Positions 5,611 to 62,238 of a stretch of 64,000 nucleotides of DNA are shown in pieces. Both the position numbers and the translations under genes were made by a program. Every line of letters starts with the position of its first letter. Within the stretch, counting starts at the first letter, position 1. The DNA is from Octadecabacter sp. B2R22 (GTDB taxonomy: Bacteria; Pseudomonadota; Alphaproteobacteria; Rhodobacterales; Rhodobacteraceae). The stretch lies in the NCBI RefSeq assembly GCF_018861045.1, contig NZ_JAHKQJ010000007.1:372001-436000 (forward strand), in the 5' to 3' direction. The notes under the pieces were generated by a model, which saw nothing but the letters and a program-made list of their open reading frames with translations, made no database searches and was not told where the DNA came from.

Positions 5611-6382
5611 TTTGGGCAACCTTTGCCAAACGATCACGTTTGACCTGCGTGAGTTCCGCAAGGATCGACAACGCGATTTCGGCCGGTGTAACAGCGCCGA
5701 TGTTTAACCCAGCGGGCGCACGGACAGCGGCGATTTGCGCGGGATCGGTACCCGCCGCGATCAGCTTTTCGGTAAGGCTTGCGAACTTTTTGGAGCTGCC
5801 GACAAATGCGACGTAATCAACAGGTTCAACCAGCCCCGTCTTCAATGCAGCGAGATCACCTTGGCCTTGCGTCGCAATCACAAGATAGCGGGCGCGATTA
5901 GGTGTGCGTTCGTCCAAAGGGGCATCCACGCCAACAGGGGCGACGGCCCATCCAAACTGTGGGGCAAGCTCTAACAGTTTCCCCGCCACGGGGGAGTCCC
6001 CAAAGACCAGTAGATCAGGCGTCGGAAGGTAAGGTTCGATAAAGATGTCGATGGTGCCTTTGGACGGGCATCCGTTGCGTGCAAATCGGACACCATCAAC
6101 GTCATCGCCCGCCCGCACGCCTTTTTCCTTCAGGTCTTCTTCCGGAGCGACCGAGATGAATTGCGGTTGCCCCGTCGCATAGGCCCGCAAAGTCGCGTCC
6201 CTGATCGCACCGCGCACGCAACCTCCGCCAAGCCAGCCTTCTAGGATCGTGCCATCTTCGCGCAGCAGCGCTTTGGCACCGGGTTTGGCTGAGGTGGTTC
6301 CGGCGGTGCGCACAATCGTGGCGATGGCGAAACAGTCTTCGCCTTCGTTCAATCCATGGTCTGTGATCTGTTTAGGTGTCAT
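5603..6382 (-). CDS. coxF: CoxF-like XdhC family protein
   Basis: A 259-residue XdhC-family protein, the second in this cluster. It has IVRTAGTTSAKPGAKALL and GWLGGGCVRGAIRDATLRA near residues 23-66, including the conserved Cys in a glycine-rich loop, then the linker FARNGCPSKGTIDIFIEPY, and a C-terminal Rossmann-like half with LLVFGDSPVAGKLLELA and YVAFVGSSKKFASL. Position right after coxD-coxE matches coxF. The predicted role is maturation of the Mo-Cu active site of CoxL. It overlaps coxE at its start (4 bases) and mocA at its end (8 bases), consistent with one coupled transcript. Confidence 0.88.
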   Translation of the reverse strand: MTPKQITDHGLNEGEDCFAIATIVRTAGTTSAKPGAKALLREDGTILEGWLGGGCVRGAIRDATLRAYATGQPQFISVAPEEDLKEKGVRAGDDVDGVRFARNGCPSKGTIDIFIEPYLPTPDLLVFGDSPVAGKLLELAPQFGWAVAPVGVDAPLDERTPNRARYLVIATQGQGDLAALKTGLVEPVDYVAFVGSSKKFASLTEKLIAAGTDPAQIAAVRAPAGLNIGAVTPAEIALSILAELTQVKRDRLAKVAQNG

Positions 6383-7560
6383 AGCCGCTCCATTTCGGTT
6401 TCAAGCGCGGCCAAGTCACCCAACGTGTTGGCTGCGCGAAACAGATCCAGATGTGGCAAGGCACCAGCCATTGCGCGGGCTGTCGGCGCATAGTCATCCC
6501 AGCCTTTGAGGGGATTCAGCCAGATAAGTTTACAGCCGCGCTTTTTCAAACGAACGAGCGCGTCGGAAATTCCGTCAGGGGACGCGGTGTCATAGCCGTC
6601 CGACAAGATGATCACGACCGTGCGGTTATCGACAAACCGGCGGCCATATGTGTTTGCGAAAGTTTCAAGGCTTTCAGATATCTTTGATCCGCCCGCGAAC
6701 CCTTCCGCCAACAAAGACAGACGCGCCAAGGCCCGCAGCGCATCTTTGTCGCGTAAGGCTTCGGTTATCCGCACAAGGCGCGTGTGAAAGAGGTAGGCAT
6801 CGGCGCGAGGATCGGCGCGCATCAGGCCGGCAAGAAATGCAAGAAAAATACGGGAATAGACAGTCATCGATCCCGACACATCGCAAATCGCCGTAATCCG
6901 CATCGTGCGATCCGGCCGCCGACGTTTGGGCAGCGCGAAGGGGTCGCCACCCGTCGCAAGGCTTTGCCGCATGACTTTGCGAAAATGGATTTGATCGCCT
7001 TTACGGGCGGCTTTGCGACGACGCGAACGGCGATCACGCAAGGCAGCGCCAAGGCGTAGCGCGATCTTTTCAGCCTCGGCAATATCCTCGGGTTGGACAA
7101 GCTCGCGCAGGTCTTTCTTGAACAGGTTGGCGACGTCAGTCGCGACCAGCTTGCCTTCGCCATCGCTTTGCGCTTCGCCGTTGCCTCCATCTGGGGCGGT
7201 TAGGTCGCCGGCGCCGCTGCTGTCTTCGCCGCGTGCCTCGCGGTTGGAATGTACGTTTTCGTTCTGGCTCGGGGTTGCCGTGGTTGTCACTCGGGTTTTA
7301 ACCCGCCCGCCATTCATCCAAAAACTGTTGAATAGCGCGTCAAACTGGGCGGCCTCTTCGGCGCAACCTGTGAAAACGGATTTCAGTGCGCGGCGCGTAT
7401 CATGCGGGTTGGCTGCGTCTATGAAGGTGAGCGCGTCTAGCGCCATACCTGTTTCCCCGACGCCCAACCGCAAGCCATTGTCGCGCAGATGCGCCACAAA
7501 TCCAGCCATGCGGGCTGCAGGCCCGGGGTCTCGGGCTGCGAATTTAGTCACAAGGCTCAT
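6379..7560 (-). CDS. coxE: CoxE, VWA-domain protein
   Basis: A 393-residue CoxE-family protein with a von Willebrand A domain. The MIDAS motif DVSGS is at residues 227-231, preceded by a basic region (RDRRSRRRKAARKGDQ) and by a low-complexity Gly/Asp/Glu-rich linker at about residues 100-140. CoxE works with the AAA+ protein CoxD, and the pair is thought to act as a chaperone that introduces sulfur and copper into the CoxL active site. The start overlaps the coxD stop by four bases (ATGA type). The linker region is poorly conserved-looking and may be flexible. Confidence 0.92.
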   Translation of the reverse strand: MSLVTKFAARDPGPAARMAGFVAHLRDNGLRLGVGETGMALDALTFIDAANPHDTRRALKSVFTGCAEEAAQFDALFNSFWMNGGRVKTRVTTTATPSQNENVHSNREARGEDSSGAGDLTAPDGGNGEAQSDGEGKLVATDVANLFKKDLRELVQPEDIAEAEKIALRLGAALRDRRSRRRKAARKGDQIHFRKVMRQSLATGGDPFALPKRRRPDRTMRITAICDVSGSMTVYSRIFLAFLAGLMRADPRADAYLFHTRLVRITEALRDKDALRALARLSLLAEGFAGGSKISESLETFANTYGRRFVDNRTVVIILSDGYDTASPDGISDALVRLKKRGCKLIWLNPLKGWDDYAPTARAMAGALPHLDLFRAANTLGDLAALETEMERL

Positions 7561-8432
7561 GCGGCTTTTCCGGCTAAGCGTTGTGCGATTTCCGTCGGGA
7601 TCGCATCGCGGTCCATTTGCGTTTTCAGCAATGTCGTCAGTGTCGCCTGCAATGTCGTAGGATCATCCGTGAGATCCGCAACACCCAGCCCCATCAACGC
7701 CGCCGCGAAGTCGAGCATTTCTGCGATGCCCGGCTTTTTCTCCAACTCTTGTTTACGCAAAGCTTGAACGAAACCGACGATTTGCGCGCACAACCGATCC
7801 GTAATGTCGGGGTAGCGCGTAACCAAAATGGACAATTCGGTTTCATGATCGGGGTAGGGGACATGGGCGTAAAGACAACGGCGACGCAGCGCGTCGCTGA
7901 GGTCGCGGGTGCCATTGGCGGTCAGGATCACAATCGGGCGTGTGGTCGCTGTGATCGTCCCCATTTCAGGGATCGTAATCTGAAACTCTGACAGGATTTC
8001 GAGTAAATAGGCCTCAAATTCCTCATCCGCGCGGTCAATTTCATCGATCAGCAACACGGGTGCCTTTTCTTGTCGGATTGCCTTTAGCAAAGGCCGTTCC
8101 AATAGGAACTCGTCCGAAAAAATACGTGCCTCTACGCTTTTGCCCGTTTCGCCGTCTTCAGATGCCGCGCGAATTGCCAGCAATTGGCGTTGGTAATTCC
8201 ATTCATAAATTGCTTGGGCGGCGTCCAGCCCTTCGTAACACTGCAATCGGATCAGTTGCGTGTTTTCGGTTGCCGCCAGCACGCGGGCCACCTCGGTTTT
8301 ACCGACACCTGCTGCTCCCTCAAGCAACAAAGGCCGTCCAAGAGACAGTGCCAAATGCAGCGCCATCGCCAGATCGCCCGAGGCAATATACCCCTGATCG
8401 GCCATAGCCGTTTGCAACGTTTTCCAAGTCAT
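7557..8432 (-). CDS. coxD: CoxD, MoxR-type AAA+ ATPase
   Basis: A 291-residue MoxR-family AAA+ ATPase. Walker A GAAGVGKT is at residues 39-46, Walker B VLLIDE at 126-131, and a sensor 1-like ILTANGTRDLSDALRRRC segment follows. CoxD of O. carboxidovorans is needed for maturation of the copper-sulfur-molybdenum centre. It sits immediately downstream of coxL with a gap of 53 bases and upstream of coxE with a four-base overlap, so ATPase and VWA partner are translationally linked, as usual for MoxR-VWA pairs. Confidence 0.93.
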   Translation of the reverse strand: MTWKTLQTAMADQGYIASGDLAMALHLALSLGRPLLLEGAAGVGKTEVARVLAATENTQLIRLQCYEGLDAAQAIYEWNYQRQLLAIRAASEDGETGKSVEARIFSDEFLLERPLLKAIRQEKAPVLLIDEIDRADEEFEAYLLEILSEFQITIPEMGTITATTRPIVILTANGTRDLSDALRRRCLYAHVPYPDHETELSILVTRYPDITDRLCAQIVGFVQALRKQELEKKPGIAEMLDFAAALMGLGVADLTDDPTTLQATLTTLLKTQMDRDAIPTEIAQRLAGKAA

Positions 8433-8485
8433 TGTTGTCCTCCCAGACGATGCGGGCCGCGCAGATCGCCGCCCGCATCAAACCT

Positions 8486-10912
8486 TTAGTCGTGCATGCC
8501 TAGATCGTTGGCTGTCTGCCAAATGCGCCAGTGGTCGTGGGGCATATTGGTGTGACGGTTGCCAAACGGGCGGAACGCATCCTGCACCGCATTCGAGAAG
8601 CACGGAACACCGCCAACATGCGGGCTTTCGCCCACGCCTTTGGCCCCAATAGGGTGGTGCGGGCTTGGGGTGACGGTGTAATCCGTTTCGTAGTTTGGAA
8701 CTTCCCATGCCGTTGGCAGGAAGAAGTCCATCAACGTCCCCGTTTTGACATTGCCCATGTCGTCATAGGCAATCTCTTGGCCCAGTGCGACGGCGAGGGC
8801 TTCTGTCAGCCCTCCATGGATTTGCCCTTCGATGACCATTGGATTGATCCGCGTGCCGCAATCATCCAGCGCATAGAAGCGGCGGATTTCCGGCACGCCC
8901 GTATCGACGTCGATGTCCATGACGCAGACATAGGCGCCAAACGGATAGGTCATGTTCGGCGGATCGTAGTAGCTGACCGCCTCAAGCCCAGGTTCTAGAC
9001 CAGGAATGGCTTGATTGTAAGCAGCGTAGGCGATGTCTTTCATCGTCTTGAACTGCTCAGGCGATCCTTTGACGACGAAGCGGTCCACGTCGAATTCCAC
9101 GTCGTTGTCGTGAACTTCGAGCAAATACGCCGCGATCATCTGTGCCTTGGCACGGATTTTACGCCCTGCCATTGCTGCCGCTGCACCCGCAACTGGAGTG
9201 GAGCGGGACCCATATGTGCCCAGACCGTAAGGTGCTGTATCGGTGTCACCTTCCTCAATCGTGATGCTTTCGGCGGACAGGCCAATCTCGGTCGCAAGGA
9301 TTTGCGCGAAGGTCGTGGCGTGGCCTTGGCCTTGGCTGATCGTCCCCAGCCGCGCAACGGCAGACCCTGTCGGGTGGATGCGGATTTCGCAGCTGTCAAA
9401 CATACCCATCCCAAGGATGTCGCAGTTCTTGACAGGTCCCGCGCCAACGATTTCGGTGAAGAATGACAAACCGATGCCCATGACCTTACGGGTTTTGCCT
9501 GCCTTGAAATCCTCAACCCGTTGAGCTTGCTCAGCACGCAGACCTGTATAGTCAACGGCCAGTAGCGCCTTGTCCCACGCAGTTTGATAGTCGCCGGAGT
9601 CGTATTCCCAACCAAGTGCTGCGGTATAGGGGAACTGTTCCTTCTTGATGAAGTTGATCGAACGCAGTTCTGCGGGGTCCATGTTTAACTCAATCGCAAG
9701 GACTTCGATCATGCGTTCGATGAAATACACAGCTTCCGTGACGCGGAACGAACAACGGTAAGATACGCCCCCCGGGGCCTTGTTGGTGTAAACACCATCG
9801 ACGCCCAGATAGGCGACGGGGATGTCATAGGACCCCGTACAGATGTTCATGAAACCCGCTGGGAATTTGGTCGGGTCAGCACAGGCATCAAATGCGCCGT
9901 GGTCAGCGGTGACGTGGCAATGCAGGCCGGTAATCTTGCCCTCTTTGGTAGCGCTGATCTTGCCCTTCATCCAGTAGTCACGCGCGAAGGCGGTGGACAT
10001 CAGATTTTCCATCCGGTCCTCGACCCACTTCACAGGGACGCCCGTCACAATCGAGGCGACGATGGAGCACACATAGCCCGGATAGACACCGACCTTGTTG
10101 CCGAACCCGCCGCCAATATCGGGGGAAACGACACGGATGTTGTGCTCCTCAATACCTGACAGCAGTGATGCAACCGTGCGCACGACGTGTGGTGCTTGGA
10201 AGGTCCCCCACAGGGTTAATTTGCCGTTCACCTTGTCCATCGACGCTACAGATCCACAGGTTTCAAGCGGGCACGGATGGGTGCGGTGGTAATACATCTC
10301 TTCGGTGGCGACGACTTCGGCGTTGTCGATCACCTGATTGGTGGCTTCTTCTTCGCCCGCTTCCCAAGTGAAAATATGATTGGGATGCTTACGAGGACCG
10401 TGGGCACCGTTGGGGATTGAACCGTCTTCGGCCACCATATCCTCACGCAGTACCACGTCTGATTGCAGTGATTTGAACGGATCAACGATCACTTCAAGTT
10501 CTTCGTAATCCACTTCGACCAGCTCAACCGCGTCGGCTGCGATATAGCGGTCATTGGCCACAACGAACGCTACTTCCTGACCTTGGAACAGCACTTTTCC
10601 GTCGGCGAGCACCATCTGTTTGTCGCCCGCCAGAGTCGGCATCCAGTGCAGGTTTAGCGGTTCTAGGTCTTTGGCTGTCAGCACGGCAACAACACCGGGC
10701 AACGCCATCGCGGCGTCGATGTTGATCGATTTCACCCGTGCGTGCGCATAGGGCGACCGTACGAAATCGCCGTGCAGCATGCCCGGTAATTTGATGTCGT
10801 CGACGTAATTGCCTTTGCCTTGGGTAAAGCGTGCGTCTTCAACCCGCTTGCGTGAACACCCCATGCCCTTAAGGTTTGCGACCCGTTCGTCGCGTGTGAT
10901 TTCGTCCTTCAT
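8486..10912 (-). CDS. coxL: CoxL, CO dehydrogenase large subunit (form I)
   Basis: An 808-residue molybdenum hydroxylase large subunit that oxidises CO at a Mo-S-Cu centre. The active-site loop reads SYRCSFR with Cys at residue 387, equivalent to the copper ligand Cys388 of Oligotropha and diagnostic of form I CoxL (form II has AYRGAGR). The C-terminal GAKGVGES motif places the catalytic Glu at residue 762. GGGFGNKVG near 267-275 and HPCPLETCG near 212-220 are further family motifs. The usual form I loop is AYxCSFR; here Ala is replaced by Ser. Its ATG overlaps the coxS stop by four bases. Confidence 0.97.
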
Positions 10913-55798: not shown

Positions 55799-56604
55799 CA
55801 CAGCGCCGATCAAGCAAAGGCGCACGCGCGACCGATGCTTTGGTCGTGCGGGGTGGTCTGGCAGAACCCGCCACACGCAACCTCCCAGAAGAGGTTCCCG
55901 TGGCGCTTGTCTATAATGGCACGACACAAGCGGTCATGATGGCCACGCCTTGTGATCTTGAGGACTTTGGCCGTGGGTTCACGCGTACCGAAGGGTGGGG
56001 CGAAGTCGACAGCGTTGAGGTCGTGAGCCATCCGAACGGGATCGAAGTTCAAATGTGGCTGCCCGAAGATCAGGCAGAAACGCTGGCCACCCGCCGTCGC
56101 GCGATGGCGGGGCCGGTTGGCTGCGGACTTTGCGGGATCGATAGTCTGGATCAGGCCGCGCGGGCCGTTCCACCCGTGACAGCAGACGTGCCGTTCACGC
56201 CGCAAGATATCGCCACGGCAATGAAGGCCCTGCGCGGCGGGCAAGACCTGCACGACACAACACGCGCGGTCCACGGGGCCGGATTTTACACATCAGGGCA
56301 GGGGCTTAGCCTCATCCGTGAAGATGTGGGGCGCCACAATGCGCTGGACAAACTCATCGGAGCGACTGTTGATTGTAGCGCAGGGGCCGTTGTTCTGACG
56401 TCTCGTGTTTCGGTCGAAATGGTCCAAAAAACCGCAATGGCGGGTTGTGCCGTGATCTTTGCCGTGTCCGCGCCGACGACCCTCGCGGTTGAAACCGCAC
56501 AGGCCGCCAATATCACCCTTGTCGCCCTAGCGCGTGACGACGGCTTTGAAATTTTCACCCATTCCCACCGCATTCAAACAAAGGACGCCTCCCATGTCGC
56601 ATGA
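55795..56604 (+). CDS. fdhD: FdhD (FdsC), formate dehydrogenase sulfurtransferase
   Basis: A 269-residue FdhD-family protein that delivers sulfur to the molybdenum cofactor of formate dehydrogenase. Motifs are PVALVYNGTTQAVMMATPCDLEDF, the loop GPVGCGLCGIDSL with CGLC (Cys pair) near residue 108, VHGAGFYTSGQG, and REDVGRHNALDKLIGA. The ATG overlaps the fdsA stop, and the fdsD gene begins within its last coding bases. Confidence 0.95.
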   Translation: MTQRRSSKGARATDALVVRGGLAEPATRNLPEEVPVALVYNGTTQAVMMATPCDLEDFGRGFTRTEGWGEVDSVEVVSHPNGIEVQMWLPEDQAETLATRRRAMAGPVGCGLCGIDSLDQAARAVPPVTADVPFTPQDIATAMKALRGGQDLHDTTRAVHGAGFYTSGQGLSLIREDVGRHNALDKLIGATVDCSAGAVVLTSRVSVEMVQKTAMAGCAVIFAVSAPTTLAVETAQAANITLVALARDDGFEIFTHSHRIQTKDASHVA

Positions 56605-56812
56605 AAAACTAGTCCGTATGGCCAATCAGATCGCGACCTTCTTTGAAAGCCAGCCCGACGCCGACAAAGCAGGCCGCGTTGCCGAACACCTAAAGGAATT
56701 CTGGGAACCGCGTATGCTGGAACAGCTTGCCGATCACCTCAGCAGTGGGGCCGATGGTCTTAGCCCTTTGGCCACCGAGGGCAGCAAACGGGTTCTTGGC
56801 CTGCCTGCCTGA
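56594..56812 (+). CDS. fdsD: FdsD, formate dehydrogenase delta subunit
   Basis: A 72-residue protein matching the small delta subunit of NAD-dependent formate dehydrogenases: KLVRMANQIATFFESQP followed by EHLKEFWEPRMLEQLADHL. The subunit is needed for assembly of the FdsABG complex. It overlaps fdhD by 11 bases and closes the operon. Confidence 0.92.
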   Translation: MSHEKLVRMANQIATFFESQPDADKAGRVAEHLKEFWEPRMLEQLADHLSSGADGLSPLATEGSKRVLGLPA

Positions 56813-56893: not shown

Positions 56894-57844
56894 ATGCTCG
56901 GACCGATCCTAAAATCACTTCGCCACGCCTATATGGACGTGACGATGCGCAATGGGCGGGATCGTGTGGTGCGTATTTTGGAACGCCCCGGTCGCTGGAT
57001 GTCGCAACAAGACCTGCAAACCCTGACATCTGACTTGCGCCAAATCGCCAGTAAAACACTGGACGAGGGCGATTTGACCTATGGCGTGTTTTCGGGGGAT
57101 CGCGACAGGCTGCGCGACACCATCGTCACCCTCGTTACCCTCAAGGACGGCACGCCCATTGCCTTTAATGCGCTTGCGATCATGACCGTTGACGTCCAGC
57201 CTGAACCTGTCGATGTGTTGCATCTTGGCCTCGTGATGGTGGATCCAGATCAACGTTCGGGTGGCTTGTCTTGGGTTCTGTATGGACTGACATGTTTCTT
57301 GCTGTTCACCCGCAACCAATTCCGCCCGCTTTGGATTTCAAACGTAACCCAAGTGCCCGCCGTGGTTGGCATGGTCTCTGAGATGTTTTCCGATATCTGG
57401 CCGAAACCCGAAGCTGACAGGCGCACGCTGAACCACGTGCTAATGGCGCGCCGGATCATGGCGAACCACCGCCATGTGTTTGGTGTGGGCGCTGATGCCA
57501 AATTTGACGAAGACCGTTTTGTCATCACCAACGCCTATACGGGCGGGTCTGACGATCTGAAAAAGACATGGGAAGACGCCCCGAAACATCGTGATGCCCA
57601 GTTCAACGAGTTTTGTGAGGTCGAGCTGGATTACGCACGTGGCGATGATGTGCTGCAGCTTGGCAAGATGGATTTGCCAGCGATCCGGCGCTATTTAACC
57701 CGCGAAGTGCCACGCACAGCGGTGTTGAGCGTTATCGGGGCGGGCCTTTATGTGGCGCTGCGTCGATTGATCCTTCCAGTATTGTATTGGTCCGACAGCA
57801 CCCGCCCGTTTTCTATCCTGCGCCCCGCAAAAGGGGACAAGTGA
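56894..57844 (+). CDS. Putative GNAT-like acyltransferase of unknown function
   Basis: A 316-residue protein. Near residues 116-135 the segment LGLVMVDPDQRSGGLSWVLYG resembles the acetyl-CoA-binding motif A of GNAT enzymes (V-x-P-x-x-R-x-x-G), preceded by beta-strand-like VTLVTLKDGTPIAFNALAIM. The C-terminal 45 residues contain a hydrophobic stretch (AVLSVIGAGLYVALRRLILPVLY), a possible membrane anchor. No family recognised with confidence. Its stop overlaps the start of the ThiF-like gene (TGATG), and it begins a four-gene unit. A role in modifying a substrate for the downstream E1-like enzyme is inference only. Confidence 0.75.
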   Translation: MLGPILKSLRHAYMDVTMRNGRDRVVRILERPGRWMSQQDLQTLTSDLRQIASKTLDEGDLTYGVFSGDRDRLRDTIVTLVTLKDGTPIAFNALAIMTVDVQPEPVDVLHLGLVMVDPDQRSGGLSWVLYGLTCFLLFTRNQFRPLWISNVTQVPAVVGMVSEMFSDIWPKPEADRRTLNHVLMARRIMANHRHVFGVGADAKFDEDRFVITNAYTGGSDDLKKTWEDAPKHRDAQFNEFCEVELDYARGDDVLQLGKMDLPAIRRYLTREVPRTAVLSVIGAGLYVALRRLILPVLYWSDSTRPFSILRPAKGDK

Positions 57845-58710
57845 TGTTCGACTATGAAGAATTCACCACCCGCAACATTGGCTTTGTCACGCGGGCCGAG
57901 CAGGACAAACTGCGCGGCGCGACGGTTTTCGTGTGCGGCACGGGCGGAATGGGCGGGGCCTGCATCCTAGGCCTTGTGCGCGCTGGGGTAGGTAAACTTA
58001 TCATCGCGGATCTGGATGAGTTTGAGGTTAGTAACCTTAACCGTCAGGTGTTCGCGTTCACCCACACGATTGACCGCCACAAAGCCGACGCCACCGCCGA
58101 GATCGCGCGCCAGATCAATCCAGAGATTGAGGTTGAAGTCCATCATGCTGATTGGACCAAACATGTAGACGACCTGATCACCCGCTCGGCAATTGTTGTG
58201 AACGGGACTGATGATCTTGGCGCATCTCTGCTGCTTTATCGTCGTGCTCGCGTGCTTGGAAAAACTGTGATTGACGCTTACGCGTCGCCGCTACCATCGA
58301 TTTATGTCACTTTGGCCAGTGACACCCCCCATGAAGAACGACTTGGTTATCCGACGACTGAAACTTCTTGGGATGCTGTGTCCGATGATCAAAGATCTCA
58401 GGCTTTTATCAAGGAATCAGAATGGGTTGTAATTCATTCTTCATCTCGAAATTACATTGATCTGGATATCGTTGGTGATGTTGTGGCAGGCAAACGGTCC
58501 CGCATGTCGTTTGGACCAATGGTCATAACGACGGGCCAGTTGATGTGCTATGAGGCAGTGAATGCAATTCTTGGCAGATCGCATGGCACTGACAACCGTG
58601 GATATTTTTTCAACCCCTACAAGGCGCGTGTTGAACGGCCCAAGCCAGCCTTTGTTGCGGCCTTGATGCGTCCAATCGTGCGGCGCTTTCTGAATGGGTT
58701 GATGTCGTGA
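57844..58710 (+). CDS. ThiF/MoeB/HesA family E1-like adenylyltransferase
   Basis: A 288-residue E1-like ATP-binding enzyme. The nucleotide-binding loop VFVCGTGGMGGACILGLVRAGVGKLIIADLDEFEVSNLNRQ (about residues 28-68) has the GxGGxG, acidic D-x-D and SNLNRQ motifs; VVNGTDDLGASLLLYRRA follows. The zinc CxxC pairs and the catalytic-cysteine crossover loop of MoeB/ThiF are not seen. Such enzymes activate a carboxylate as an acyl-adenylate. Codons 145-215 (about 58280-58490) are noticeably more AT-rich than the flanks. It is coupled to genes on both sides (TGATG and GTGA overlaps). Confidence 0.88.
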   Translation: MFDYEEFTTRNIGFVTRAEQDKLRGATVFVCGTGGMGGACILGLVRAGVGKLIIADLDEFEVSNLNRQVFAFTHTIDRHKADATAEIARQINPEIEVEVHHADWTKHVDDLITRSAIVVNGTDDLGASLLLYRRARVLGKTVIDAYASPLPSIYVTLASDTPHEERLGYPTTETSWDAVSDDQRSQAFIKESEWVVIHSSSRNYIDLDIVGDVVAGKRSRMSFGPMVITTGQLMCYEAVNAILGRSHGTDNRGYFFNPYKARVERPKPAFVAALMRPIVRRFLNGLMS

Positions 58711-59906
58711 CGCTTGTGGCCGCTGATACAGTCAATCTGTTCCTGTCTCTCGCCGCATTGGCGGGGGTGTTTATCTTGCAACGTGTCATTTGCGCGCGTG
58801 ATCCATGGGCGCCTTTGAACCGTCGGTTCCTGACGGGGCTGCGTGTTATGATCATGTTGTTTGCAGGGCGTGCGTTGCTGGTCCTGACGGGGTGGGAGTT
58901 CTTTCGATTTTTCATCCTGCTCGGCGCCAGCCTTATTCCACTTTCGGTATTGCTATTGTCCGAAGGGCTATTGCGACGCCATGCGCCGAGATGGGCCAAA
59001 ATCTGGGTCGGCGGTGGCACCGCGATTTTCGCCATCCTGTCTTTGTGGTGGTCGGACAGCATCGACCCTGCGCGTCTTGTGGGGCTGTTGGTCTTTCAGC
59101 TCAGCGGGTTCGGGATTGGCGCGTGGTTGGTCCTGACACGAGACAAAGACAGCCTTTCGGTCGCCGAAAACCAGACCGTTGAACGTCTAGCATTGTCGTT
59201 GCTGTTGCTGATCCCCTTGGCCGCAGCTGATTTTCTTTTCCTATATCTGAATCTGCCCGCACAAATATCCGCCCTTGGGGTGCTATTCTTGTGTTGGTTG
59301 GCGGTCTCCTTGGGGCGGGCACAGGCGCAGCACCGTGCTCCGCTGGTGTCGTTTCTGGCGATCGTTATTGGCGCAGGGCTGTCGGGTGGCGTCGTTGCTT
59401 ATTTTGCCGCTATGGATCGTGACACGACGATCCTGACGTTCGTGGTGATCTTGGCAGCGGTTCTGGTCGCGGTCCTATTCATCGAAGCCCAGACATTGCG
59501 CGCCGAAGAGCAATCCCAGACCTTGCTGCGCCACATCGCAGATGATCGATCCGGTGATGCGTTGGTCTTTCTTCGTGGACTTCAGGCGCATCCCTTGGTT
59601 GAGGGTGCGGCGCTCATCTCGGACCCACAGCTCAAGGACTTCGATAGGGCCGTTCTGACCCACATCTTTCGCCGCGCTCCAGTTTTGCGCCGCTCTGATC
59701 CGCCGTTTCAGGACGGGGCCGAAGGCGATCACATCACCCATCTATTCCACTTGTTTGATGCCAGCCACATTCTGATTGCCGATGACGCGCCGCTTAAGCT
59801 TGTGGCGCTGTCTATGCCGTCGCTTGCGACCTCGCCGCGGGCGGAATTGGAACTGGCAGCTGTACAGCGCATGGCACGGTTGATGTCACAACGGCAGGTT
59901 GGGTAG
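58707..59906 (+). CDS. Multi-pass membrane protein with C-terminal soluble domain
   Basis: A 399-residue protein with a GTG start overlapping the ThiF-like stop. Residues 1-265 contain about eight hydrophobic segments (for example LFLSLAALAGVFILQRVI, LVFQLSGFGIGAWLVLT, FVVILAAVLVAVLFI), after which a 130-residue soluble part follows (TLLRHIADDRSGDALVFLRGLQ ... LAAVQRMARLMSQ). The layout recalls 7-8 TM sensor proteins but there is no kinase, cyclase or HTH signature. Conserved with the ThiF and nitroreductase genes presumably; function unknown. Confidence 0.78.
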   Translation: MTLVAADTVNLFLSLAALAGVFILQRVICARDPWAPLNRRFLTGLRVMIMLFAGRALLVLTGWEFFRFFILLGASLIPLSVLLLSEGLLRRHAPRWAKIWVGGGTAIFAILSLWWSDSIDPARLVGLLVFQLSGFGIGAWLVLTRDKDSLSVAENQTVERLALSLLLLIPLAAADFLFLYLNLPAQISALGVLFLCWLAVSLGRAQAQHRAPLVSFLAIVIGAGLSGGVVAYFAAMDRDTTILTFVVILAAVLVAVLFIEAQTLRAEEQSQTLLRHIADDRSGDALVFLRGLQAHPLVEGAALISDPQLKDFDRAVLTHIFRRAPVLRRSDPPFQDGAEGDHITHLFHLFDASHILIADDAPLKLVALSMPSLATSPRAELELAAVQRMARLMSQRQVG

Positions 59907-59907
59907 T

Positions 59908-60879
59908 ATGTTGATATCTCAATATATATTTGAACAATGTGTGATGCGGGCAGGGCTTGCACCAACCGTTCACAACACCCAGCCAGCCCGTTGGGTTCGC
60001 GACGGTGATGCGCTTTCGTTGTTCTGTGACACCAACGTTGGCCTGACGGTCGGGGACCCGACGGGGCGCGATGCGGCGCTGTCATGCGGTGCTGTGCTTG
60101 AGGCGATGGTCTTGGCACTGTCGGCGCATCACATCGCGGCGCAGGTTACCCTGACGGACACTGACACAGCACCGGGCCAAGGGCTTGTAGCGGTGGCGCA
60201 TCTGACGTTGTCGCAGGGCGATACTGACGGCTTGCACAGACAGCTCGAGACCCGGTTTACATGGCGGGCAGGGTTTGCAGATCAACCGGTTCAATTGTTT
60301 GGCTGGACCCGTGATGACACGCGTTTGGTCTTTGACCAGCCTGCGCGCGCTTGGCTGGCGGAGCGAAACGATTTTGCCAGCCATGAAATCATGCAAGAGG
60401 CGGCGTTTCGCCGTGAGCTGGTTGATTGGATGCGCCTTGATCCGCAACACCCGCGGGCCGGGCTGGACGGCATGGATCGCGCATCGATGCACATGACCAA
60501 TTCCGAGGCCTTTGCTGCGCCATATGTTTTGACCAATTTTTGGCCGATACTATCGCTTTTTCGACAAACCAGAAAGCTGGCGTCAGAGGCTGAGGCGACA
60601 TTAACATCGCCCGTTATCGCACTGTTTTATCGCGATGAATTTGAAAATTCGGCCATATCTGGCCGTGCATACATGCGCTTGTGCCTTGAGGCCGCGTCGC
60701 TTGGTTTGGCGGGGTGGCCTATGGCTGCGTTGTCCGATTGCGCGCAGACCCATCAAGAAACCTGTGAGCGTTTTGGCATCCCAGCAGGCCAGCGGCTTGT
60801 CCAGGCTATTCGGTTTGGGGTTCCGACAGGACAGGCCCCAATCCGTGCCAGACGCCCGCTTCACGAGACGCTACGATAG
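59908..60879 (+). CDS. Nitroreductase family (Acg/SagB-like) flavoprotein
   Basis: A 323-residue nitroreductase-fold protein. The opening RAGLAPTVHNTQPARWV near residues 12-28 is the FMN-phosphate-binding A-x-x-S/T-x-x-N-x-Q-P motif, and the C-terminal LCLEAASLGLAGWPMAAL is the second family motif; the inner segments resemble Acg-like nitroreductases, with double-length spacing. ATG at 59908, two bases after the preceding stop. In other bacteria nitroreductases next to, or fused with, ThiF-like domains occur (mycobacterial MoeW/MoeY types). Substrate unknown. Confidence 0.82.
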   Translation: MLISQYIFEQCVMRAGLAPTVHNTQPARWVRDGDALSLFCDTNVGLTVGDPTGRDAALSCGAVLEAMVLALSAHHIAAQVTLTDTDTAPGQGLVAVAHLTLSQGDTDGLHRQLETRFTWRAGFADQPVQLFGWTRDDTRLVFDQPARAWLAERNDFASHEIMQEAAFRRELVDWMRLDPQHPRAGLDGMDRASMHMTNSEAFAAPYVLTNFWPILSLFRQTRKLASEAEATLTSPVIALFYRDEFENSAISGRAYMRLCLEAASLGLAGWPMAALSDCAQTHQETCERFGIPAGQRLVQAIRFGVPTGQAPIRARRPLHETLR

Positions 60880-61047: not shown

Positions 61048-62238
61048 ATGGCCGATACGTTATTAAGTGGAATTGTCATCAGCGAGATCTTCGTTGACCC
61101 GAATGGTGCGCAGAACTTTGACACCGATGGCAATGGCACAGCGGCGGCCACGGATGAGTATATTGAGATTTACAACGCGTCTGGCAGCGCGATTGATATC
61201 TCCGGGCTTGAGCTGTGGGACGCGGGCGCCGGGAATTGGTTTACGTTTCCTGACGGAACGATTTTAACCGCTGGAGGGCACGCGATGGTCCTCACTGGGG
61301 TCCAGTCAGGAGGCAGCTTGCCGACCGGTGGCGCGGATGATTTGTTCTTTGATGCAGGTCGTGGGACCGCACTCATCAACAATGGGGGCGACAACGTCAC
61401 CCTTTTTGATCCGAGCAGTGATGAATTCGTTCAAGCGACCTTCAATGGCGATACCTTGGATGATCCGACCAGCTATTCAGGGTTTTCGGCGACGGCCACA
61501 CAGGTGGGCAGTGGCGAGGATTTCGGCAATGACACCGACGGTGAATCCCTGCAGCGCGCAAGTGACGGCACGGATACCTTTACGAGCGACACCCCCACAC
61601 CCGGCACAACCAATGTGTGCTTTGCGGATGGGTCTCGGATTGAGACCCCGACAGGCGATATCGCCATTGAAGATCTGAAAGTCGGCGATCCTGTTATGAC
61701 CTTGGACAACGGGGCGCAGCCAGTGCGCTGGCTCTACAGTTGCACGTGGCGCGCAGATCAGGTTGCGCAATGCCCCAGCCTTGCTGCTGTCCTTATTCAG
61801 GCGGGCGCGCTGGGTGTTGGATACCCGACGCGCGATTTGCGTCTGTCACAGCAACACCGCGTATTGGTGCGTGGCGCAATTGCCCAGCGGATGTTCGGGA
61901 CGTCCGAGGTTCTGATCCCCGCAAAGGCGTTTTTGGCCATTAAGGGCGTATCGCTAGATAAATCGGCACCGTCGGTGACGTATTACCATGTGATGTTAGG
62001 CGATCATGAGGTGATTTTTGCCAACGGCATCGCCGCTGAAAGCCTTTATTTGGGCCGTCAGGCGATTGAGACGATCCCATGCGCGGCCTTGGCCGAGATC
62101 GGTTTGATCCTTGATCTGCCTGTCGACGACCTTGGGGATGCAACGAAGATGTCGCGTCCGGCACGCGGGTTTGTTCGGGGCAGACGGGCGGCAAAACTGA
62201 TCGAACGTCATGCAAAGAACAGCCGCCCGATAATCTAG
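61048..62238 (+). CDS. LTD (lamin-tail) plus Hint domain protein
   Basis: A 396-residue two-domain protein. Residues about 5-150 are a lamin-tail domain (LSGIVISEIFVDPNGAQN, EYIEIYNASGSAIDISGLEL, NNGGDNVTLFDPS) rich in Asp and Gly. From residue 191 a Hint_2 domain begins, CFADGSRIETPTGDIAIEDLKVGDPVMTLD, with a Cys at the splice position, RLSQQHRVLVRGA, and the terminal HEVIFANGIAAESL. Hint domains can self-cleave. No classical signal peptide, so type I secretion is likely, as for similar roseobacter proteins. Stands alone; GGATCGTGACCC precedes the ATG. Confidence 0.85.
   Translation: MADTLLSGIVISEIFVDPNGAQNFDTDGNGTAAATDEYIEIYNASGSAIDISGLELWDAGAGNWFTFPDGTILTAGGHAMVLTGVQSGGSLPTGGADDLFFDAGRGTALINNGGDNVTLFDPSSDEFVQATFNGDTLDDPTSYSGFSATATQVGSGEDFGNDTDGESLQRASDGTDTFTSDTPTPGTTNVCFADGSRIETPTGDIAIEDLKVGDPVMTLDNGAQPVRWLYSCTWRADQVAQCPSLAAVLIQAGALGVGYPTRDLRLSQQHRVLVRGAIAQRMFGTSEVLIPAKAFLAIKGVSLDKSAPSVTYYHVMLGDHEVIFANGIAAESLYLGRQAIETIPCAALAEIGLILDLPVDDLGDATKMSRPARGFVRGRRAAKLIERHAKNSRPII

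What the first reader, a model, noticed from the sequence alone, without database searches (positions are those of the whole stretch)
56894..60879. Compact four-gene operon pairing an E1-like enzyme with a nitroreductase, a membrane sensor-like protein and a GNAT-like protein
Seen: four consecutive plus-strand genes with TGATG and GTGA overlaps and a one-base gap. Family knowledge: ThiF/E1-like enzymes adenylate carboxylates, and nitroreductase-fold proteins oxidise or dehydrogenate (SagB-type azoline oxidation) or reduce; fused ThiF-nitroreductase proteins exist in mycobacteria. Inference: together with an acyltransferase-like protein and a membrane protein, this could be a small-molecule or peptide-modification system, or a cofactor-modification route. 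The E1 lacks the zinc cysteines and catalytic crossover Cys, so ubiquitin-like transfer is unlikely. I know of no described pathway with this set.
Basis: partly seen in the sequence, partly recalled or inferred. Interest (0 to 1): 0.75.

Follow-up and report, generated by a model that had tools for sequence, protein, structure and literature searches.

The report
E1-like lipid-modifying operon with hidden partner
A marine bacterium carries a small conserved operon that probably builds and then ring-closes or desaturates an unusual fatty-acyl lipid, much like recently described oxazolone lipid pathways but with different acyl-transfer and membrane proteins and with a partner gene elsewhere in the genome.

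Summary
The four plus-strand genes are real, at the stated coordinates, and conserved as a unit: ORF1, E1 (ThiF), membrane protein and nitroreductase-fold flavoenzyme occur together in 17 of 17 other window-type E1 loci and in 10 of 10 matching Rhizobiaceae plasmid records. The window operon probably works like these but fails one membership feature: no FeeM-type N-acyl amino acid synthase was found. ORF1 matches no family significantly, and a membrane protein is built in. New here: a tandem-GNAT gene sits inside the operon in other lineages, is unlinked in this genome (G000:C7:61992-63101), and occurs in exactly the same 9 of 198 family genomes as the E1. ORF1 lacks the E1 at four places on its tree (two forced by supported branches; one of the four is an incomplete genome), and the tandem GNAT is undetected in those four genomes. 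Chemistry is inferred, not shown.

The parts
56894..57844 (+). ORF1, 316 aa, unknown conserved family; GNAT-like acyltransferase suspected; hydrophobic C-terminal segment (residues 276-298)
   Evidence: alignment; hydropathy; only sub-threshold hits, GNAT and NodA among them; no PDB relative
57844..58710 (+). E1/ThiF-like adenylating enzyme, 288 aa, invariant GxGGxG, D58, N64, R67, K80, D123/D124; no conserved Cys
   Evidence: own group next to PRK08223-type E1s
58707..59906 (+). Membrane protein, 399 aa, about 8 hydrophobic segments plus a soluble C-terminal part of about 120 aa; no known family
59908..60879 (+). Nitroreductase-superfamily flavin enzyme of the Acg/Rv3131 (flavin-dependent oxidase) kind, 323 aa
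   Evidence: NF047509 E 4.5e-39, 134.8 bits, below its 199 cut-off; closest solved structure 2ymv, Acg
56594..56812 (+). Flanking gene, not part of the system: FdsD-like last gene of the formate dehydrogenase operon that precedes the cassette (name by eye)
   Evidence: the same flank in 6 of 23 loci examined

Best explanation
The operon encodes the tailoring half, and probably part of the acylation half, of a fatty-acyl (amino-acid-type) lipid pathway that works like N-acyl oxazolone biosynthesis. Proposed steps: (1) an acyltransferase - ORF1 and/or the unlinked tandem-GNAT protein - attaches a fatty acyl group to an amine with a free carboxylate [inferred]; (2) the E1 uses ATP to adenylate that carboxylate, and because it has no conserved cysteine the acyl-adenylate is attacked directly, closing a ring (oxazolone/azlactone type) or forming an amide [adenylation motif shown in sequence; reaction inferred from TyzB/TrzS]; (3) the flavoenzyme uses FMN and O2 to desaturate the product [family shown by sequence; reaction inferred from TyzC/TrzS]; (4) the membrane protein with its soluble tail and the C-terminal hydrophobic segment of ORF1 keep the chemistry at the inner membrane and may sense or pass on the lipid [inferred]. 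E1 and the tandem-GNAT protein probably act in the same branch because they are present and absent together; ORF1 and the membrane protein can persist without them.
For: Conserved four-gene unit: 17 of 17 loci; 10 of 10 plasmid records with the order ORF1-E1-MEM-GNAT-NR (PLSDB annotation). E1 has an intact adenylation motif and no invariant cysteine. Its top NCBI family is PRK08223 and its nearest group on a tree of 52 E1s is the PRK08223 type. PRK08223-type E1s lie within the same 14-kb stretch as FeeM/exosortase-type N-acyl amino acid synthase-like genes in 7 of 7 loci not used to build that profile (L084-L090; 7 fetched of 15 above-cut-off genomes; weakest E 8e-9 and 4e-8). Model PRK14852 joins an acyltransferase-like part, E1 and nitroreductase in the operon's order. 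TrzS is Rv1355c, a shown cyclase/desaturase (PMC12856293), and E1 and flavoenzyme both match the Rv1355c model (6.4e-13, 1e-9). The flavoenzyme is Acg-like; Acg is also the nearest solved relative named for the TrzS oxidase domain. Lipid-type neighbours elsewhere: acyl-ACP--phospholipid O-acyltransferase beside the operon on 9 of 10 plasmids; a RoxA-like di-heme cytochrome beside the operon or its GNAT in L008, L010, L082, L083, L116, L117, L143. Tandem GNAT and E1 in the same 9 of 198 genomes; GNAT undetected in ORF1-bearing genomes without the E1: G448, G506 and G022, G049, G123.
Against: No FeeM/TyzA-type synthase in the window-type loci (NAS profile gave no hit in them); ORF1 is not significantly similar to any acyltransferase. 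The flavoenzyme scores far better with the Rv3131/Acg (FDO-B-like) model than with the Rv1355c (FDO-A) model (134.8 vs 37.2 bits), whereas the one beside a PRK08223-type E1 in L012 scores 104.8 vs 121.3; PMC10404671 says that on current data FDO-Bs are not involved in oxazolone synthesis. For the E1, ThiF and MoeB models outscore PRK14851, PRK14852 and Rv1355c, and its group is separated from PRK08223-type E1s by long branches; no TyzB, TrzS or OxzB sequence was in that tree. No full-length PRK14852 fusion was seen (0 of 6 genomes over the cut-off). Amino acid, acyl chain and product are unknown. No structure could be predicted.
Confidence: 0.5

Rival explanations
1. A true but remote N-acyl oxazolone pathway: ORF1 is a diverged N-acyl amino acid synthase and the product is an ordinary N-acyl oxazolone or N-acyl dehydroamino acid. 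The tandem GNAT is accessory.
For: Component logic identical to TyzACB/TrzAS (PMC10404671, PMC12856293). ORF1 has an R/Q-x-x-G-x-S/A stretch after V-x-P (residues 116-125), typical of GNAT acyl-CoA sites (motif recalled); the G is kept in 11 of 17 members (S or N in 6). Weak hits to NodA, Acetyltransf_9 and Acetyltransf_1 in 2 of 17 members each.
Against: Unrelated families (YpoC, GST_C_2, WapI, FlbD) reach comparably weak E-values. Profile comparisons of ORF1 with FeeM-type proteins are null, though the method also fails between the tandem GNAT and FeeM, so it is insensitive; ORF1's best match to the tandem GNAT falls on the motif but is no better (E 0.13) than a control pair, tandem GNAT against E1 (E 0.13). 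E1 absence tracks the tandem GNAT, not ORF1.
Confidence: 0.25
2. The E1 condenses two acyltransferase products: the tandem GNAT acylates or supplies the nucleophile and the E1 activates the carboxylate made by ORF1, giving an amide- or ester-linked lipid, not a ring (as in direct amide-forming E1 relatives such as MccB; recalled).
For: Two acyltransferase-like proteins in one system; E1 and tandem GNAT occur together; ORF1 + membrane protein stand alone in L080 and L081; acyl-ACP--phospholipid O-acyltransferase neighbour on 9 of 10 plasmids.
Against: Nothing tests the linkage chemistry; the characterised E1s of comparable clusters (TyzB, TrzS) cyclise.
Confidence: 0.15
3. Ubiquitin-like or sulfur-carrier E1 (ThiF/MoeB-like) or tRNA ct6A dehydratase.
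For: ThiF-fold with significant hits to these families.
Against: No conserved Cys and no CxxC in 18 homologues; the operon has no gene for a ubiquitin-like, ThiS- or MoaD-like partner; scores below the cut-offs for ThiF, MoeB and TcdA; group separate from 14 other E1s with 98/95 support; a separate CxxC-bearing E1 exists in this genome (G000:C4).
Confidence: 0.05
4. A membrane signalling cassette: the membrane protein is a receptor for the acyl lipid made by the rest (autoinducer-like).
For: About 8 hydrophobic segments plus a soluble tail; ORF1 + membrane protein is the smallest unit kept (L080, L081); oxazolones resemble AHL signals (PMC12856293 discussion).
Against: No kinase, cyclase or DNA-binding domain found; no homology to PrsK (hhalign probability 0.6%).
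Confidence: 0.1

Closest known systems
TyzACB (tyrazolone) and TrzAS (tryptazolone) pathways of mycobacteria (PMC10404671, PMC12856293)
   Same: ThiF-type adenylating enzyme plus a nitroreductase-superfamily flavin enzyme in one cluster with an acyltransferase; Acg (2ymv) is the nearest solved relative of the flavin enzyme here and of the TrzS oxidase domain (paper section read)
   Different: No FeeM/TyzA-type acyltransferase found; unknown ORF1; extra membrane protein; flavin enzyme scores as Acg/Rv3131-like rather than Rv1355c-like; tandem-GNAT partner, unlinked in this genome
Stieleriacine / thalassotalic acid / kyonggic acid clusters (PMC7293339, PMC12479983)
   Same: N-acylation + ThiF + nitroreductase gene set; short or overlapping spacing described there for two of the producers
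   Different: Those have NasY-type N-acyl amino acid synthases; none detected in the window-type loci
PRK14852/PRK14851 family models and PRK08223 E1s near exosortase-type acyltransferases
   Same: Acyltransferase-E1-nitroreductase order in the PRK14852 model; PRK08223 type is the nearest group in the E1 tree
   Different: Fused, or near PEP-CTERM genes in L012; E1 separated by long branches; different acyltransferase family
Acg nitroreductase (PDB 2ymv)
   Same: AP-x-x-HNTQP-x-R motif and domain match
   Different: PMC10404671 says the three FDO-B genes of M. tuberculosis, Acg among them, are not near genes predicted for oxazolone synthesis

Membership tests
N-acyl oxazolone biosynthesis (OxzAB/TyzACB/TrzAS) | ThiF-type E1 with intact adenylation motif | tested here: met
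   no conserved cysteine
N-acyl oxazolone biosynthesis (OxzAB/TyzACB/TrzAS) | Adjacent nitroreductase-superfamily flavin-dependent oxidase of the FDO-A kind | tested here: inconclusive
   Adjacent FDO-like enzyme present, but 134.8 bits with the Rv3131/Acg model and 37.2 with Rv1355c; no FDO tree was built
N-acyl oxazolone biosynthesis (OxzAB/TyzACB/TrzAS) | Adjacent N-acyl amino acid synthase of the FeeM/OxzA/TyzA kind | tested here: not met
   No FeeM hit for ORF1; NAS profile silent in the window-type loci. OxzA and TyzA sequences themselves were not compared
N-acyl oxazolone biosynthesis (OxzAB/TyzACB/TrzAS) | ATP-dependent cyclisation and O2-dependent desaturation of an N-acyl amino acid | not testable with these tools
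   needs enzymes
GNAT superfamily (ORF1) | Significant profile match or GNAT fold | tested here: inconclusive
   Best Pfam E 0.22 for P0001; 2 of 17 members hit each of Acetyltransf_1, Acetyltransf_9 and NodA, best E 0.017, beside unrelated families at comparably weak E; fold prediction switched off
GNAT superfamily (unlinked partner G000:C7:61992-63101) | Match above Pfam gathering score | tested here: met
   PF00583 23.1 bits vs cut-off 20.7; L010 homologue 56.1 bits
Acg/Rv3131 flavin-dependent oxidoreductase (NF047509) | Score above curated cut-off | tested here: not met
   134.8 vs 199 bits, so a relative, not a filed member
ThiF/MoeB sulfur-carrier E1 | Zinc CxxC pairs, score above cut-off and a ThiS/MoaD partner | tested here: not met
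   no partner gene in the operon
TcdA tRNA ct6A dehydratase | Score above PRK15116 cut-off | tested here: not met
   50.8 vs 304 bits
PRK08223 E1 equivalog | Score above cut-off over full length | tested here: not met
   113.2 vs 266 bits, residues 2-145 only; separate group
PrsK-type membrane sensor (membrane protein) | Profile homology to PrsK N-terminal membrane region | tested here: not met
   hhalign probability 0.6% (a method that also missed GNAT-to-GNAT kinship)

The most novel reading that the evidence does not exclude
A lipid-building system in which two acyltransferase-type proteins of new or unassigned families (ORF1 and the tandem-GNAT protein) and a cysteine-free E1 make a lipid class that is not one of the known N-acyl oxazolones, desaturated by an Acg-type oxidase - a subgroup that PMC10404671 did not connect with oxazolone genes. 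[quoted passage not shown]
Probability: 0.3. Interest if true: 0.8.

Novelty: new variant of a known kind. Interest (0 to 1): 0.6.

Why it matters
Oxazolone-type lipids are a recent class whose physiological role is called a major unresolved question (PMC12856293). A compact relative in soil and marine bacteria, with a membrane protein built in and an unlinked GNAT that occurs with it, gives a tractable place to ask what such lipids do. It would also give a function to an unannotated conserved protein family (ORF1), to the membrane protein, and possibly to the Acg-type oxidases.

Tried and rejected
Ubiquitin/sulfur-carrier/tRNA readings of the E1: rejected on cysteines, scores, neighbours and tree. 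Defence system: PADLOC gave 32 families for the E1 (the 25 listed are all E1-E2 models, matching the E1 domain) and none for the other three proteins. ORF1 as FeeM/exosortase acyltransferase: profile comparison null, but the method also failed between two GNAT-type families, so this is weak evidence. Membrane protein as PrsK-like sensor: not supported (a first attempt used a wrong reading frame for L098 and was redone). RoxA-like cytochrome as a core component: rejected, strong hits (E under 1e-200) in only 2 of the 9 E1-bearing family genomes and none at 1e-20 in the window's own genome; three genomes without the E1 have partial hits. Paper searches found nothing usable; others found the papers cited. 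The original OxzAB paper was not found and is known here only through PMC10404671 and PMC12856293. The FeeM family search in 76 genomes rang nowhere, not even in its 14 controls, and is not used.

Rows dropped before counts: L072 (same as L005) in the counts; two sequences under 230 residues before the E1 tree (52 of 54 used). The ORF1 tree (28 rows) lacks L005/L072, the cut L079, the G123 fragment and plasmid copies identical to another row. In one search the PRK08223-type loci L011, L012, L014 and L091 come from genomes that supplied the NAS profile and are left out of the '7 of 7'; L013 (a 3.4-kb contig) had no NAS. In alignment A2 some rows start upstream of the likely start codon; A6 trims most of this. 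G022 (L139) is 85% complete and its contig ends about 50 bases after ORF1, so its 'E1 absent' is unsure. L141/L147 and L145/L150 are near-copies among the ten plasmids.

Motifs and names recalled, not from a call: GNAT R/Q-x-x-G-x-G/A motif; MccB amide chemistry; a GNAT-type bacterial ceramide synthase as a thought for the tandem GNAT (a search, did not help).
Full report
WHAT IS THERE. The window holds four consecutive plus-strand genes exactly as described: ORF1 (56894-57844), E1 (57844-58710), a membrane protein (58707-59906) and a nitroreductase-fold protein (59908-60879), with TGATG and GTGA overlaps and a one-base gap. Upstream is a formate dehydrogenase-type operon ending in FdhD- and FdsD-like genes (named by eye); downstream is a Hint/Lamin-tail-domain protein. 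The nearest named genome is Octadecabacter algicola (E1 96% identical). The window's genome has a single window-type E1 plus one remote, CxxC-bearing E1 elsewhere.

THE PARTS. The E1 matches ThiF at 3.7e-35. Its adenylation residues are invariant in 12 aligned sequences; across 18 sequences no cysteine is invariant and none has a CxxC. Among NCBI families it scores best with PRK08223 (113 bits against a cut-off of 266, residues 2-145 only), then with ThiF, MoeB and PRK14851 models, with Rv1355c lower (47.8 bits). On a tree of 52 E1s, rooted at the midpoint, the 18 window-type sequences form one group (99/99), next to 20 PRK08223-type sequences (100/98) and apart from 14 other E1s (98/95), on long branches; no TyzB, TrzS or OxzB sequence was in it. 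The nitroreductase-fold protein is closest to the Rv3131/Acg model (4.5e-39, below its cut-off) and to Acg 2ymv among solved structures. ORF1 is a well-conserved family (52 invariant columns in 17 sequences) with no significant relative in Pfam, NCBIfam or the PDB. It has a GNAT-like R-x-x-G-x-S/A stretch, the G kept in 11 of 17, and a hydrophobic C-terminal segment. The membrane protein has about eight hydrophobic segments and a soluble tail and no known family.

CONSERVATION. Among named genomes the set occurs in Octadecabacter, Pseudooctadecabacter, Maritalea, an uncultured Rhodobacteraceae bacterium and a Bacteriovoracaceae bacterium. Profiles of each protein found ORF1, E1, membrane protein and nitroreductase-fold protein together in 17 of 17 other loci with a window-type E1 (cut by contig ends in L079; in L010 the membrane gene comes first). 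In 6 of these 17 a fifth gene, a tandem-GNAT protein of about 370 aa, lies between the membrane protein (in L010, the E1) and the nitroreductase-fold gene. Ten plasmid records of Ensifer, Shinella and Rhizobium hold ORF1 and E1, and all ten carry the five-gene order. Where annotated (four of ten) the genes read hypothetical / ThiF / hypothetical / GNAT / hypothetical. On 9 of the 10 the next gene, convergent, is an acyl-ACP--phospholipid O-acyltransferase; on the tenth it is the RoxA-like cytochrome. In L145, L149 and L150 the GNAT or nitroreductase-fold gene reads in more than one piece, and in L144 several genes do.

THE HIDDEN FIFTH COMPONENT. In the window's genome the tandem GNAT is not in the operon but at G000:C7:61992-63101 (59% identical to the Maritalea copy). 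In a sample of 198 family genomes (197 genera) the E1 was found in 9 at 1e-30 and the tandem GNAT in 9 at 1e-40, and they are the same nine handles. Chance agreement of two random sets of nine would be about 1 in 1e15, but related genomes are not independent, so this number overstates the case. ORF1 is in 12 of the 198: those nine plus G022, G049 and G123. G049 keeps ORF1, membrane protein and nitroreductase-fold gene after the formate dehydrogenase genes, as in the window, without the E1. G123 holds only a remnant. G448 and G506, outside that sample, keep ORF1 and membrane protein alone, with only remote E1s elsewhere. The tandem GNAT was not found in any of these five. On the ORF1 tree the four full-length E1-less members need four separate changes; well-supported branches force at least two. 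So the E1 and the tandem GNAT appear to have been lost together more than once. G022 is incomplete and its contig ends just after ORF1, so it is the weakest case; two rows on the tree, L010 and L081 (G506), have long, unsure branches.

HOW IT MOST LIKELY WORKS. Published pathways pair an N-acyltransferase, a ThiF-type cyclase and a nitroreductase-superfamily oxidase. TyzACB makes C12 tyrazolone: TyzA acylates tyrosine, TyzB cyclises with ATP and TyzC desaturates with O2 (PMC10404671; abstract and sections 4, 5, 11 read). TrzAS makes tryptazolones; TrzS is a ThiF-oxidase fusion whose D217A variant gave no cyclised product and whose R540A variant made less tryptazolone and accumulated the cyclised intermediate that had not been desaturated (PMC12856293; abstract and sections 4, 7, 8 read). 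Producers of stieleriacines, thalassotalic and kyonggic acids share synthase, ThiF and nitroreductase genes, and a relative without the last two makes only saturated compounds (PMC12479983; abstract and section 6 read). PMC7293339 (section 8 and passages read) proposed a cyclic intermediate in 2020. The family model PRK14852 contains all three parts: its positions 30-224 match FeeM-type proteins, about 313-590 the E1 and about 613-985 the oxidase, the order of the window's operon with the membrane protein inserted; no full-length fusion was itself seen here. The window's operon therefore most likely acylates an amine-bearing carboxylate, activates the carboxylate with ATP, and desaturates. Steps shown: gene set, motifs, co-occurrence. 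Steps inferred: every reaction.

WHERE IT DIFFERS. No FeeM-type synthase was found in the window-type loci; ORF1 is unassigned; a membrane protein is present in all 17 loci and ten plasmids; the oxidase looks Acg/Rv3131-like, a group that PMC10404671 says is not involved in oxazolone synthesis on current data; the E1 is its own group; and the tandem GNAT follows the E1. Since one defining feature was tested and not met, it is not filed as a member of the oxazolone pathways; that it works like them is the best reading (0.5).

LITERATURE LIMITS. That this operon itself was not found described rests in the open-licence PMC library only; subscription papers, the OxzAB paper among them, were not available. 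[quoted passage not shown] PMC6296433 (passages read) names Roseovarius and Loktanella producers. The link to those compounds is speculation.

VERDICT. Observation confirmed, interpretation partly right, pathway type already known in outline, this version a new variant with an unsuspected fifth gene.

Noticed in passing
G000:C7:61992-63101 (L113:7993-9102): Tandem-GNAT gene unlinked to the operon but present in exactly the same 9 of 198 family genomes as the E1.
   Followed up: yes
L138 (G049) 5983-9072: Same flank after the formate dehydrogenase genes, with ORF1, membrane protein and nitroreductase-fold gene but no E1; tandem GNAT also undetected in that genome.
   Followed up: yes
L140 (G123) about 6017-6806: Decayed remnant of ORF1 and the nitroreductase-fold gene among sugar ABC transporter and glycerate-kinase-like genes (by eye), similar to the surroundings in L080.
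   Followed up: partly
L005 10022-11467, L006 10019-11698, L007 10025-11599, L140 8062-9981 (minus strand): A di-haem cytochrome c peroxidase/MauG-type gene (PF03150, E 4.1e-32 or better) lies convergent right after the operon in three Octadecabacter-type genomes and beside the remnant in L140: a second kind of di-haem cytochrome in the place where other lineages have a RoxA-like one.
   Followed up: partly
L008 11190-12887, L010 6230-7885, L082, L083, L116, L117, L143: A RoxA-like di-heme cytochrome is a recurrent neighbour of the operon or of its tandem GNAT, but only in some lineages.
   Followed up: partly
L012 1084-10301; L011, L013: PRK08223-type E1 beside exosortase-associated acyltransferases, PrsT and an MMPL-type transporter (L012), with PEP-CTERM-like proteins by eye in L011 and L013: an E1 link to the PEP-CTERM system that one paper search did not find described.
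   Followed up: partly
L141, L142, L144-L150: Acyl-ACP--phospholipid O-acyltransferase gene lies convergent to the five-gene operon on 9 of 10 Rhizobiaceae plasmids.
   Followed up: partly
L144, L145, L149, L150: Some operon genes on Rhizobium/Ensifer plasmids read in two or more pieces (sequencing error or decay).
   Followed up: no
L082 12532-13359 and L083 4487-5317: Similar alpha/beta hydrolases flank the operon region in two distant alphaproteobacteria.
   Followed up: no
window 61048-62238: Hint plus Lamin-tail-domain protein directly downstream of the operon.
   Followed up: no
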